64,000 bases of DNA from an uncultured Clostridia bacterium (GCA_947597925.1 CANQFA010000003.1:91689-155688), one strand, 5' to 3'. Counted from the first letter of the stretch, positions 59,552 through 62,997 are shown. A program made the numbers and translations. The notes: generated by a model not told the origin, from the sequence alone.

Positions 59552-60814
59552 TCAATTCCAAGTCGGTGTTGCGGTATTTTCGAACGCCTTCGTGCCGACA
59601 TTGTTTTGCGCCGCTTTGTTGATTGTAATAGATTGGAGCATGGAGCAGTTTTGGAATGCACCATGGCCCACAACGGTTTCATTTGTGATTGTCACAAGTC
59701 TTAATGTCGAGGGGATATAGTAATAATCGCTATCATTAATACCATACCCCTCTCTAAAATATTGTAAGACCCTTGTTCCACCTTGATATGAACTCGTACC
59801 AAAAATGTATCCGAAACAAGCCGAGGTTGTATTGCTATTCCCTTTTTGACTGCCGACAAAGGGCAAAGTGATGCTCCGAAGGGAAGAACAGCCATTGAAG
59901 GCAGCCTCTCCAATCGAAGTAACAGCATTCGGGATGACGAAAGTCCCCGCTGTTTCAGAATTGATTTGTGATAGTGCGCTACAACCTTTGAAGGCTTCTG
60001 CGCCAATAGTATTTACGGAAGCATTGATGATGAACTTACTCAAGCCTATACATCCATTGAACAATGACGAAGGAATGATCGAGATGCTCGGCAAATTGAT
60101 TTCTTCGATTTTTGAGCAACCGCTAAAACTGCTTACGCCGACTTGGATAATTTTATCGTTTAACTCGATTTTTGTCAGCATAGAGCAATTTTGGAATGCG
60201 CCGCGATTGATGATCGTTTCATTTGTGATAGTCACAAGTCTTAATGTCGAAGGGATATAGTAATAATCGCTATCAGAAGTGCCATACCCCTCTCTAAAAT
60301 ATTGTAAGACATTTGTTCCACCTTGATATGAACTTGTTCCAAAAATATAACCAAAACAAGCCGAGGTTGTATTGCTATTCCCTTTTTGACTACCGACAAA
60401 GGGCAAAGTGACACTCCGAAGGGAAGAACAGCCATTGAAGGCTCCCGCGCCAATCGTTGTCACGCTCTCGGGGACGATAATGGACGTAATCGCGTTGCAC
60501 CCTTTGAATGCGTCTGCGGGGATCGTGTCAATGGATACGCCATTGTGAGTCGAGGGAATCGTTACATCGCCCGAAATGGACGTGCTTGCCGCTTTAATGG
60601 AAGCGCCCGAATAGATAAAGGTGCCGTCGCTGTCCTCTTGAGGTTGCGAACTCCCGCCGCTTGAGCCGGAGCCGCTGCCCGATGAACTCCCACCGGAACC
60701 GCTGCTCCCTCCGCTCGTTCCCAATCCGAAAAGTCCGCACGCCGCGAGTCCGAGGCAGCAGCAGATGGCAAAGGCAAGAGACAAAATCATTATCAACCAT
60801 TTTTTCATCATCAT
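59552..60814 (-). CDS. LRR_5 (BspA-like) lipoprotein with Ser/Gly-rich linker and internal duplication
   Basis: CCCLGLAACGLFG lipobox; GTSGGSSGSGGSSSGSGSGSSGGSS; AFNGCSSLRSVTLPFVGSQKGNSNTTSACFGYIFGTSSYQGGT occurs twice; any of three tandem ATGs at 60814/60811/60808 may be the start. Confidence 0.88.
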   Translation of the reverse strand: MMMKKWLIMILSLAFAICCCLGLAACGLFGLGTSGGSSGSGGSSSGSGSGSSGGSSQPQEDSDGTFIYSGASIKAASTSISGDVTIPSTHNGVSIDTIPADAFKGCNAITSIIVPESVTTIGAGAFNGCSSLRSVTLPFVGSQKGNSNTTSACFGYIFGTSSYQGGTNVLQYFREGYGTSDSDYYYIPSTLRLVTITNETIINRGAFQNCSMLTKIELNDKIIQVGVSSFSGCSKIEEINLPSISIIPSSLFNGCIGLSKFIINASVNTIGAEAFKGCSALSQINSETAGTFVIPNAVTSIGEAAFNGCSSLRSITLPFVGSQKGNSNTTSACFGYIFGTSSYQGGTRVLQYFREGYGINDSDYYYIPSTLRLVTITNETVVGHGAFQNCSMLQSITINKAAQNNVGTKAFENTATPTWN

Positions 60815-60834
60815 TTCTCCTTATAAAATAAAAA

Positions 60835-60859
60835 GTGCGCCAACCGAAGTTAAGCGCAC
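60835..60859 (-). terminator. Leader intrinsic terminator just upstream of the LRR gene RBS
   Basis: Minus strand GTGCGCTTAAC-TTCG-GTTGGCGCAC-TTTTTATTTT. Confidence 0.8.
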
Positions 60860-60866
60860 TACAAAA

Positions 60867-61052
60867 CGCAAACTCCGATTGTCGCCAAACAAGTTTATAT
60901 AGGGTACAGATTTACATACCGATATATAGGAATTTGCAATTTTGCCAATTCTAATATCGGTATGAAAGGGGCAGGATATACCTTCCCTGTCAAATCAAAA
61001 TTACATGAAAAAAACTGTACGCCTCCTTGAAAAGAATATAAACTTGTTTGGC
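60867..61052 (-). promoter_or_regulatory. Nested inverted-repeat leader of the LRR gene
   Basis: 17-bp arms 60884-60900/61036-61052, 6-bp 60904-60909/61015-61020, 11-bp 60915-60925/60954-60964; antiterminator strand 60867-60877. Confidence 0.75.
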
Positions 61053-61058
61053 ATAATC

Positions 61059-61088
61059 AGTATACCACAAAATAGGCTGTCTTGTCAG
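61059..61088 (-). promoter_or_regulatory. Promoter of the LRR gene
   Basis: Minus strand CTGACA-N18-TATACT preceded by TGG. Confidence 0.6.
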
Positions 61089-61160
61089 GAGCAGAAAAAA
61101 ATTTTTTCGTGAAGAAAACCACTCCTCGCGCGAACTACCGAGGAATATCGGGTTTCTTTT

Positions 61161-61236
61161 TACCACCTTCCACCAAGAAGACGGCACCCTGTCGGGTGCC
61201 GTCTTCCTGGTGGAGAAGTGATAACGTAAAACGAAT
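61161..61236. repeat. 3' hairpin repeat, copy 1 (downstream of exonuclease gene)
   Basis: CCACCAAGAAGACGGCACCC-TGTC-GGGTGCCGTCTTCCTGGTGG (19/20 bp stem) plus flanking GTGATAACGTAAAACGAATA. Confidence 0.9.
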
Positions 61237-61245
61237 AATGTAAGT

Positions 61246-62622
61246 TTATTTTATTTGCGTATAGAAATCTTCTTCCTTAATAATAAGAATAGAACAGCCT
61301 TGCTCGATAAGTTCTTTTGCCCTTCTGAATTTTGTGCCGTAGTTATCGTGAGCATACGCATCGCATCCCATATCTCCCACTATAAGGATGTTCAGCTTTT
61401 TTGAAACACTGCCTACAATTATACCCCCTCGTTCCTTGATATATTCTTCTACTTTGGACTTTGATCCATGGGAAAATGTTCCACTCAAACATATAGTCAT
61501 CCCTTTGACAGAGCAAATTTGCGTTTTGAGCGAAGCAACTGGATTCAGAATTTTATCAATTTCTGAAAGCAAATATTGACTTTCTTCATCTGTTACATGA
61601 TTGTCCTCCAGAATATCATCCAGCAATTCCATTATCTTGTCAAACGGATAATGTCCTCTTAAATAGTCGTGCTCATATAGCCATTTGCTTAGCGCGTTGC
61701 ATTCCTGCAAAGTGATGACACCATCGCTTCTAATGCCTTTCAAAATTCCAGATAATATTTGCGTCGAGATAGTTACTTCCGATGATGAAATATTTTGGTA
61801 ATATTTTGTCATTGCCCCATGCAGATTCTGTAATTCGTCGGGAGTTATTATGCTATCTCTTGTAATACGCTTTATCAAAGCAAAAATTTCTGCAACATCA
61901 TCGTGCTCCGCGAATTGCTTATGTTCCGCTTCCCAATTTTTGATATATTCTAATTCTTTGCTTGAAACTTCGCAATCCATACCAATACCTTGAATTGTTC
62001 CATAAAATTCGCCGATAGACTTCCGAAGTTGCGGATTGGAAACATACTCTACAAATCTAAAGTTTTCACTCGCATCATAACGATGTACATATTGATCCAA
62101 AGAAAAATGATACGCTTTATGTAAAGCCAAAAATAAATCTTTACAGGCACACGCATCATCGAAAGCGTCGTGCTCATTGTCTATTTCAACTCCAAAAAGT
62201 TTGCACAAAGTACTCATTTCGTAATTTTGAATTGCAAACGATGGCACAAATTCTCTCGCAATTCTAAGTGTATCAACATAATACAGTGTAGGAATATCAA
62301 TGTTGTACCTTTGAAGATTTTTTGTAAGTGCATCCAAATCTGCTCCCGCCACATTGTGTCCTATTATGATGGAGTTTGTAAAGCATGGCTCAACTTCACG
62401 CCAGACTTCGGGGAAAGTAGGCTCATGAGCAACTTTTTCCGCTGTAATGTGATGTACCCTAACACACCCGTCTTCAAACCTATCTTCGGGATTGACATAC
62501 ACATTTTTTTCGGGATAAATAGGCTCTCCGTCTTCGAAGTTCTCACACATAATTCCCATTTGACAAATTGACTTGTTTTTGTTATTTGCCCATTCGACAT
62601 CAAAATAAGTTACTTTTTTCAT
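61246..62622 (-). CDS. DnaQ-like 3'-5' exonuclease with C-terminal BRCT domain
   Basis: YFDVEWAN, GHNVAGADLDALT, HDAFDDACACKDLF (DEDD family motifs); C-terminal GMTICLSGTFSHGSKSKVEEYIKERGGIIVGSVSKKLNILIVGD (BRCT); RBS CGAGGTGATATTG. Confidence 0.85.
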   Translation of the reverse strand: MKKVTYFDVEWANNKNKSICQMGIMCENFEDGEPIYPEKNVYVNPEDRFEDGCVRVHHITAEKVAHEPTFPEVWREVEPCFTNSIIIGHNVAGADLDALTKNLQRYNIDIPTLYYVDTLRIAREFVPSFAIQNYEMSTLCKLFGVEIDNEHDAFDDACACKDLFLALHKAYHFSLDQYVHRYDASENFRFVEYVSNPQLRKSIGEFYGTIQGIGMDCEVSSKELEYIKNWEAEHKQFAEHDDVAEIFALIKRITRDSIITPDELQNLHGAMTKYYQNISSSEVTISTQILSGILKGIRSDGVITLQECNALSKWLYEHDYLRGHYPFDKIMELLDDILEDNHVTDEESQYLLSEIDKILNPVASLKTQICSVKGMTICLSGTFSHGSKSKVEEYIKERGGIIVGSVSKKLNILIVGDMGCDAYAHDNYGTKFRRAKELIEQGCSILIIKEEDFYTQIK

Positions 62623-62655
62623 CAATATCACCTCGTAAAAATTTTTAATAAAAAG

Positions 62656-62678
62656 ATGCGCCTCATAGAGAGGCGCAC
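62656..62678 (-). terminator. Leader intrinsic terminator upstream of exonuclease gene
   Basis: Minus strand GTGCGCCTC-TCTAT-GAGGCGCAT-CTTTTTATT. Confidence 0.82.
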
Positions 62679-62784
62679 GAAAAATGCACCTCTCAATGTT
62701 GCGACACATTTTCCTATTTTAGGGTGAGAGAATACACTTTTACCGAGAGTATTCCCCTAAAATAGGCTATTAAAATGTGTCGCA
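62668..62784 (-). promoter_or_regulatory. Nested inverted-repeat leader with antiterminator of exonuclease gene
   Basis: TGCGACACATTTT/AAAATGTGTCGCA, CCTATTTTAGGG/CCCTAAAATAGG, GAATAC/GTATTC; antiterminator 62668-62677 with 62685-62694. Confidence 0.78.
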
Positions 62785-62789
62785 TGGTT

Positions 62790-62818
62790 ATTATAGCACT
62801 TCGTGCGCCAATAATCAA
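62790..62818 (-). promoter_or_regulatory. Promoter of exonuclease gene
   Basis: Minus strand TTGATT-N17-TATAAT. Confidence 0.7.
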
Positions 62819-62862
62819 GTCATCAGTAAGTATTTTTCGATAAAAAATCAAAATAGCACTTT

Positions 62863-62918
62863 GGCGGGTGCTTGACTAAAACGAGCGCGCCGCTACGCGG
62901 CGCGGTCAAGCACCCGCC
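62863..62918. repeat. Large GC-rich cruciform
   Basis: GGCGGGTGCTTGAC / GTCAAGCACCCGCC outer arms (14 bp) with inner CGCGCCGC-TAC-GCGGCGCG. Confidence 0.93.
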
Positions 62919-62997
62919 CTGCCGACCTACAAAACCGAAAAAAGAAAATCAATCAAAGCCGCGCGAAGCGGCGGCCGCCGCTGAACCGCTTGGCAAT

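What the first reader, a model, noticed from the sequence alone, without database searches (positions are those of the whole stretch)
60656..62784. Twin attenuator-type leaders on two adjacent, unrelated genes
Seen: both the LRR gene (start 60814) and the exonuclease gene (start 62622) have a promoter, then at the predicted +1 a long-range inverted repeat (17 bp closing arms at 61052/60884; 13 bp at 62784/62700), then an intrinsic terminator directly before the RBS, plus an upstream strand able to form a competing antiterminator. Exonuclease: terminator 62656-62678 versus GAGAGGTGCA/TGCGCCTCTC (62685-62694 with 62668-62677, 10 pairs). LRR gene: terminator 60835-60859 versus CGGAGTTTGCG/CGCTTAACTTCG (60867-60877 with 60845-60856, 10 pairs). 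The two leaders are not alike in sequence. No T-box core (TGGNACCGCG) is visible. Inference: riboswitch-like or protein-controlled attenuation, possibly a new leader class in this island.
Basis: partly seen in the sequence, partly recalled or inferred. Interest (0 to 1): 0.75.

Follow-up and report, generated by a model that had tools for sequence, protein, structure and literature searches.

The report
Portable RNA switch before accessory genes
Two neighbouring genes in this gut bacterium start with related RNA leaders that can fold into either a 'stop transcription' or a 'keep going' shape; the same kind of leader, absent from the RNA family database, sits in front of many unrelated, mostly surface or unknown genes across uncultured gut Clostridia, so it looks like an unrecognised shared on/off switch whose signal is unknown.

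Summary
Both genes have a promoter, a closing stem P1 starting at the predicted +1, an intrinsic terminator just before the ribosome-binding site, and a competing antiterminator. Both leaders fold far better than shuffles (z about -7.5). A scan of the 64-kb window for this layout finds only these two, and none in reversed controls.

The leaders are distant members of one superfamily, not two unrelated ones. The LRR-type leader occurs in at least 119 contigs of gut Clostridia MAGs, in front of unrelated genes, and matches no Rfam family. In 97 dereplicated relatives the P1, terminator and antiterminator pairings show compensatory changes.

An apical strand (D) pairs with the 5' strand of the antiterminator (A). 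D and A co-evolve: own pairs beat swapped pairs (0 of 10,000 permutations; 1 of 20,000 in members found by P1 alone). In folding calculations the window leaders form the antiterminator. Blocking the 5' half frees D, which captures A, and the terminator forms (93 of 97 leaders; only 22 if D is shuffled).

Best reading: a cis-acting three-way transcription attenuator controlling accessory genes. The signal is unknown and no expression data exist.

The parts
61083..61088 (-). -35 box (CTGACA) of the LRR-gene promoter
   Evidence: sequence; 18 nt before the -10
61059..61064 (-). -10 box (TATACT) of the LRR-gene promoter
   Evidence: sequence; P1 starts 6-7 nt after the -10 in 132 of 139 candidate relatives
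61036..61052 (-). LRR leader, P1 5' arm, begins at predicted +1
   Evidence: 17 bp with 60884-60900; helix pairs 99.9% (outer) and 91% (inner) of cells with double changes in 97 relatives
60884..60900 (-). LRR leader, P1 3' arm; its end can alternatively pair with the start of A (Q)
   Evidence: columns 232/243 pair in 93 of 97
60969..60988 (-). LRR leader, middle hairpin (AGGGAAGGTATATCCTGCCC; relatives often GGGATAxTATACCCTTTTT)
   Evidence: alignment A1; TATACCC in 20 of 136 against 1.4 in shuffles
60929..60951 (-). LRR leader, apical D hairpin (GAATTGGCAAAATTGCAAATTC) with D strand 60929-60946
   Evidence: D:A pairing
60862..60881 (-). LRR leader, A strand (CAATCGGAGTTTGCGTTTTG): 5' half of antiterminator (60871-60881) and target of D (60862-60876)
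   Evidence: antiterminator 99.0% of cells paired, 49 double-change cells vs 19.7 shuffled; D:A 97.9% paired
60841..60851 (-). LRR leader, B strand (AACTTCGGTTG): 3' half of antiterminator, overlapping the terminator loop and 3' arm
60830..60859 (-). LRR leader intrinsic terminator (UUCG loop) and T-run
   Evidence: hairpin -12.2 kcal/mol; 98.9% of cells paired, 6 pairs with double changes
60817..60822 (-). ribosome-binding site of the LRR gene
   Evidence: sequence
59552..60814 (-). BspA-type LRR lipoprotein gene, 420 aa
   Evidence: LRR_5 1.1e-41
62813..62818 (-). -35 box (TTGATT) of the exonuclease-gene promoter
   Evidence: sequence
62790..62795 (-). -10 box (TATAAT) of the exonuclease-gene promoter
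   Evidence: sequence
62772..62784 (-). exonuclease leader, P1 5' arm from predicted +1
   Evidence: pairs with 62700-62712; P1 sequence recurs in distant genomes
62700..62712 (-). exonuclease leader, P1 3' arm
62713..62766 (-). exonuclease leader, P2 (12 bp) enclosing the apical D hairpin 62730-62754; D strand 62726-62741 (AAAAGTGTATTCTCTC)
   Evidence: D:A swap test
62680..62694 (-). exonuclease leader, A strand (GAGAGGTGCATTTTT), pairs with D or with B
   Evidence: D:A -16.8 kcal/mol; co-evolution in the exonuclease-type leaders 0 of 10,000 permutations
62668..62677 (-). exonuclease leader, B strand (TGCGCCTCTC), 3' half of antiterminator
   Evidence: antiterminator hairpin -17.5 kcal/mol
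62650..62678 (-). exonuclease leader intrinsic terminator and T-run
   Evidence: hairpin -16.4 kcal/mol
62628..62634 (-). ribosome-binding site of the exonuclease gene
   Evidence: sequence
61246..62622 (-). DnaQ-like DEDDh exonuclease + BRCT gene, 458 aa
   Evidence: RNase_T 2.8e-20, BRCT 4.3e-06; PRK06195 6.9e-36 below its cutoff

Best explanation
Both leaders are members of one superfamily of cis-acting transcription attenuators with four competing parts. (1) The first nucleotides of the transcript form a long stem P1 that closes over an apical hairpin holding strand D. (2) Strand A follows P1 directly. If D stays in its hairpin, A pairs with B (antiterminator) and the gene is transcribed. 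(3) If the upstream 5' half of the leader is unavailable, D (helped by the P1 3' arm) captures A. B is then free to pair with C, the terminator forms, and transcription stops before the ribosome-binding site. Shown by sequence comparison: the layout, both alternative helices, and the co-evolution of D with A. Inferred: that the structures act during transcription, that D:A means OFF, and that the trigger is something occupying or opening the 5' half (a protein, RNA, ribosome or ligand).
For: P1, D hairpin and terminator: 96.1% of cells paired vs 86.6% shuffled, 17 pairs with double changes, slid controls 31-44%. Antiterminator: 99.0% paired, 49 double-change cells vs 19.7. D:A: 97.9% paired; own D:A -17.4 vs swapped -10.1 kcal/mol over 18 leaders of four sequence classes, 0 of 10,000 permutations; out of sample -17.2 vs -11.3, 1 of 20,000. 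P1 sits 6-7 nt after the -10 in 132 of 139 candidates. The start codon follows the T-run by a median of 21 nt. The conserved block runs from the -10 to the T-run; the genes attached are unrelated. Computed switch: 5' half masked gives terminator > antiterminator in 93 of 97 leaders; with D also shuffled, 22 of 97; with D also masked, 15 of 97.
Against: No RNA-seq, start-site mapping or termination assay exists here. With no mask the antiterminator wins in only 66 of 97 leaders, so the resting state is not uniform. Masking P1-5' alone does not flip the fold, so the whole 5' half has to be unavailable. Within the LRR class D:A varies mostly by one-sided (G-U) changes; the compensatory evidence comes from comparing classes. 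Related sequences inflate covariation counts. The energy model ignores pseudoknots, so D:A with P1 intact was judged only by geometry.
Confidence: 0.8

Rival explanations
1. Classical riboswitch: a small molecule binds a folded aptamer in the 5' half and shifts the balance between D hairpin and D:A; the wide range of genes would fit a second messenger rather than a pathway metabolite. (A sub-reading of the best explanation: it differs on the sensor.)
For: Switch layout and position are typical; exported or membrane proteins dominate downstream (90 of 128), as for known second-messenger riboswitches (own knowledge).
Against: Conservation lies mostly in strands that pair. The P1-D core is shared by all types, while the middle region is variable or absent in the short leaders. 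No Rfam class matches.
Confidence: 0.3
2. Protein- or RNA-controlled attenuator: a trans factor recognises the constant P1 end (GCNAMACA...TGTKTNGC + RACA) or the 5' half, while the D/A/B code drifts freely. (Also a sub-reading of the best explanation.)
For: P1 sequence is the part kept across classes and distant genomes when the D/A/B strands are completely different.
Against: No candidate factor identified; P1 conservation could also reflect start-site or RNA-stability constraints. The P1 pattern was used to find these members, which biases this point.
Confidence: 0.35
3. Leader-peptide control: a ribosome on a tiny ORF in the 5' half changes the fold (trp/erm-like).
For: Some leaders close to the LRR one carry AAGGAGG followed by AUG-stop or 2-4 codons; 20 of 136 leaders have SD+ATG ORFs vs 6 in shuffles. 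Masking the 5' half flips the fold.
Against: Absent from most members, including the exonuclease leader; the G-rich strand also belongs to helix P2; no codon bias visible.
Confidence: 0.12
4. Unregulated fixed-ratio terminator: the two folds split transcripts to give low, noisy expression of accessory genes, with no signal.
For: Folds are nearly balanced in part of the family (antiterminator > terminator in 66 of 97).
Against: A weaker promoter would do the same; long co-evolving D:A and P1 would be unnecessary.
Confidence: 0.15
5. Mobile DNA or recombination element, or a stand-alone small RNA, rather than a leader.
For: Near-identical copies sit before unrelated genes; one copy on a faecal phage contig.
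Against: Conservation stops at the -10 and T-run with no flanking repeats visible; compensatory changes in RNA helices; fixed short distance to an RBS and start codon.
Confidence: 0.05

Closest known systems
PyrR-type attenuators of pyr operons (terminator / antiterminator / anti-antiterminator)
   Same: Three mutually exclusive helices decide between termination and readthrough; an upstream element acts as anti-antiterminator (own knowledge).
   Different: Here the anti-antiterminator is a long-range D:A helix whose D strand is enclosed by a P1 stem from +1; genes are not pyrimidine genes; no Rfam match.
T-box leaders
   Same: Long leader with terminator/antiterminator choice before the RBS.
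   Different: No TGGNACCGCG core in any of 136 leaders; genes are not tRNA synthetase or amino-acid genes.
c-di-GMP riboswitches of Clostridia
   Same: Control many unrelated, often surface-exposed genes through terminators (own knowledge).
   Different: No Rfam match to any riboswitch family; shared conservation is in pairing strands and no aptamer core common to all types was recognised.
Leader-peptide attenuators (trp, erm)
   Same: Relay of alternative hairpins in a leader.
   Different: No conserved leader ORF across the family.

Membership tests
Transcription attenuator (intrinsic-terminator type) | Intrinsic terminator between promoter and start codon | tested here: met
Transcription attenuator (intrinsic-terminator type) | Mutually exclusive antiterminator supported by covariation | tested here: met
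   99.0% cells paired, 49 double-change cells vs 19.7 shuffled; shares strand B with the terminator
Transcription attenuator (intrinsic-terminator type) | Readthrough changes with a signal | not testable with these tools
   needs transcription assays
PyrR-type three-way attenuator | Anti-antiterminator element upstream | tested here: met
   D:A co-evolution; D needed for the computed flip
PyrR-type three-way attenuator | Located before pyrimidine genes / PyrR site | tested here: not met
   downstream genes are LRR, lipoprotein, membrane, methyltransferase etc.
T-box | TGGNACCGCG core / Rfam T-box match | tested here: not met
   0 of 136; no Rfam hit
Riboswitch | Match to a known riboswitch family | tested here: not met
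Riboswitch | Conserved ligand-binding core | tested here: inconclusive
   strongest conservation is in pairing strands; middle hairpin conserved only in part of the LRR class
Riboswitch | Direct binding of a small molecule | not testable with these tools
   biochemistry needed
Leader-peptide attenuator | Conserved short ORF with RBS in the leader | tested here: not met
   20 of 136 vs 6 expected, absent in most members
Stand-alone small RNA (6S-like) | No fixed linkage to a downstream coding sequence | tested here: not met
   ORF start a median of 21 nt after the T-run; 97 of 128 within 5-45 nt

The most novel reading that the evidence does not exclude
A previously undescribed, widespread regulon-forming leader in which a constant stem made from the first nucleotides of the transcript is read by one global signal, while the terminator-controlling code (D, A, B strands) drifts freely. 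The A strand mimics the 5' half of the leader, so the RNA measures whether its own 5' half is occupied. Hundreds of unrelated accessory and surface genes of gut Clostridia would be switched this way.
Probability: 0.35. Interest if true: 0.85.

Novelty: new variant of a known kind. Interest (0 to 1): 0.72.

Why it matters
Attenuators and riboswitches usually sit before genes of one pathway. Here one RNA architecture, absent from Rfam, precedes unrelated and mostly uncharacterised genes (LRR surface proteins, lipoproteins, membrane proteins, EcoRI-type methyltransferases, an exonuclease) in many uncultured gut Clostridia. It marks a candidate common signal for accessory and surface genes, gives a handle for predicting co-regulated genes in bacteria that cannot be cultured, and offers a clean test case for how a free-drifting strand code keeps a switch working.

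Tried and rejected
Rfam at gathering and permissive thresholds: nothing. Leader as mobile unit: ends and flanks do not support it. Defence-gene regulon: PADLOC hits are sporadic. Conserved start-stop mini-ORF: seen by eye in the LRR subgroup, not conserved. Masking only the P1 5' arm as trigger: does not flip the fold. Other copies in the own genome: the LRR-type model finds one copy and a P1 pattern none more; the R1 model applied to a phylum-wide sample scored only 8 candidates per genome and found nothing else, so pattern search was used instead. Four of five viral hits to the P1 pattern are chance: no promoter, D:A only -5 to -7 kcal/mol. Literature: no description found in the held library; the supplement of PMC8040213 (3161 candidate RNAs from human microbiomes) could not be read, so overlap with an unnamed candidate there is not excluded.

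Full report
WHAT WAS CHECKED. The two leaders lie on the minus strand. The LRR leader runs from the predicted +1 at 61052 to the T-run at 60830; the exonuclease leader from 62783/62784 to 62650. Both fold much better than 200 dinucleotide shuffles (z -7.54 and -7.59, none as good). A scan of the whole window for a -10 box followed 5-8 nt later by an arm whose reverse complement comes 50-230 nt further on and is followed by RACA (or RACNR) returns exactly these two places, and none in the reversed sequences. The genes are a BspA-type LRR lipoprotein and a DnaQ-like exonuclease with a BRCT domain.

A FAMILY, NOT A PAIR OF ODDITIES. The LRR leader is found in 41 of 101 related genomes, including other families of the order; the exonuclease leader mainly in the same genus, with a few weak matches elsewhere in the order. 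In an even sample of the bacterial class the exact pattern occurs in 32 of 391 genomes and 23 of 222 genera, with no hit for the reversed control. No Rfam family matches the window or the relatives.

STRUCTURE. From 139 candidates (136 of plausible length), 97 dereplicated leaders were aligned. P1 starts 6-7 nt after the -10 box in 132 of the 139, so its 5' arm is the very start of the transcript. P1, D hairpin and terminator together: 96.1% of cells paired against 86.6% in shuffles and 31-44% in slid controls, 17 pairs with changes on both sides. The antiterminator A:B: 99.0% paired, 49 double-change cells against 19.7.

THE MISSING STRAND. An apical strand D (GGYAAAAxTGCAAATTCC in the LRR class, GGTAAAAGTGTATTCTCTC in the exonuclease class) is complementary to A over about 14-16 nt. 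Within the LRR class it is 97.9% paired but mostly through conserved or one-sided changes. Across 18 leaders of four sequence classes, own D:A pairs average -17.4 kcal/mol against -10.1 for swapped pairs (0 of 10,000 permutations; the exonuclease class alone also 0). As an out-of-sample test, a pattern made only from the P1 ends of the exonuclease type was run over 391 genomes and the viral collection. All seven genomes with a hit (the window's own among them) carry a complete element with promoter and long D:A pairing, including distant families with entirely different D and A; a terminator was found in six, the seventh being cut off by the contig end. One viral hit is real and four are chance. 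Their own D:A is -17.2 against -11.3 swapped (1 of 20,000). The 3' arm of P1 can also pair with the first bases of A: columns 232 and 243 form a pair in 93 of 97 leaders with 44 double changes. This may partly reflect shared ancestry, because B varies in step.

HOW IT PROBABLY WORKS. In nested folding the window leaders form P1 + D hairpin + antiterminator. With P1 and P2 closed, A starts at the base of a 24-bp (exonuclease) or longer rod and cannot reach D at its top with a linker of about 6 nt (geometric inference). If the 5' half up to D is masked, D:A forms (mean probability 0.88) and the terminator wins in 93 of 97 leaders, and in the exonuclease leader too. If D is shuffled or masked as well, the terminator wins in only 22 or 15 of 97. 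Masking the P1 5' arm alone does not flip the fold. So the computed logic is: intact upstream half, ON; upstream half unavailable, D captures A, OFF. That this happens in cells, the direction of the switch, and what the signal is are inferences. The unmasked antiterminator is favoured in only 66 of 97, so the resting state may differ between members.

WHAT IT CONTROLS. The start codon follows the T-run by a median of 21 nt, which argues for a cis leader rather than a stand-alone RNA. Of 128 downstream proteins, 40 look like lipoproteins, 50 others have membrane or signal segments, 38 look soluble (rough sequence criteria). Of 106 scanned, 15 have BspA-type LRRs, 5 zinc ribbons, 2 are EcoRI-type methyltransferases, and most Pfam families occur once. 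Leader pairs more than 80% alike have unrelated neighbours on both sides in 112 of 170 cases, and similarity stops at the -10 and the T-run. The leader is therefore a portable control unit on accessory genes. A faecal phage contig (MT835503) carries one before an EcoRI-type methyltransferase.

VERDICT. Observation confirmed; the attenuation reading and the 'new leader class' reading are supported and widened. It works like a three-way attenuator with an anti-antiterminator, but it is not a member of the T-box or PyrR families or of any Rfam class. The signal is unknown. It counts as a new variant of a known kind, of high interest because one architecture governs many unrelated accessory genes in poorly known gut bacteria.

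Noticed in passing
window 61000-61030 (minus strand), and L018, L020, L021, L023, L026, L048, L049, L170: Leaders close to the LRR one carry a Shine-Dalgarno-like AAGGAGG followed by a minimal ORF (AUG-stop, or 2-4 codons such as MFF or MFT). Enriched over shuffles (20 of 136 vs 6) but not conserved family-wide; start-stop ORFs could be a ribosome sensor in this subgroup.
   Followed up: partly
L075, L089, L212, MT835503.1 (L255: 336-650): EcoRI-type adenine methyltransferase genes repeatedly carry this leader, once on a faecal phage contig; its P1 (GTCACAC..GTGTGAC) resembles the second class while D/A resemble the LRR class, so the modules recombine or drift independently.
   Followed up: partly
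L065 (G072:C37), G404:C37, G071:C7, G014:C2, L051: Leaders of this superfamily often lie within 0.3-5 kb of each other, as the two in the window do, hinting at clusters of attenuator-controlled accessory genes.
   Followed up: no
window 62855-62925: Large GC-rich inverted repeat (GCGGGTGCTTGAC ... GTCAAGCACCCGC) upstream of the exonuclease promoter; looks like a strong bidirectional terminator or a repeat element.
   Followed up: no
window 61170-61222: Strong palindromic terminator (ccaccaggaagacggcaccc/gggtgccgtcttcttggtgg) between the exonuclease gene and the LRR leader, isolating each gene as its own transcription unit.
   Followed up: no
window 59552-60814: The LRR protein contains two nearly identical stretches of about 80 residues (FVGSQKGNSNTTSACFGYIFGTSSYQGG...LQYFREGYG...), suggesting recent internal duplication or recombination.
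   Followed up: no
L087, L088, L093-L095 and L090-L092, L096, L098-L102 leaders: Second and third sequence classes of the same leader (P1 GTCACACAAG and GCCACACAAT) mostly precede large lipoproteins with repeats such as HTHTFASTWTSDEEFHWHAATC; not analysed separately beyond the D:A swap test.
   Followed up: partly
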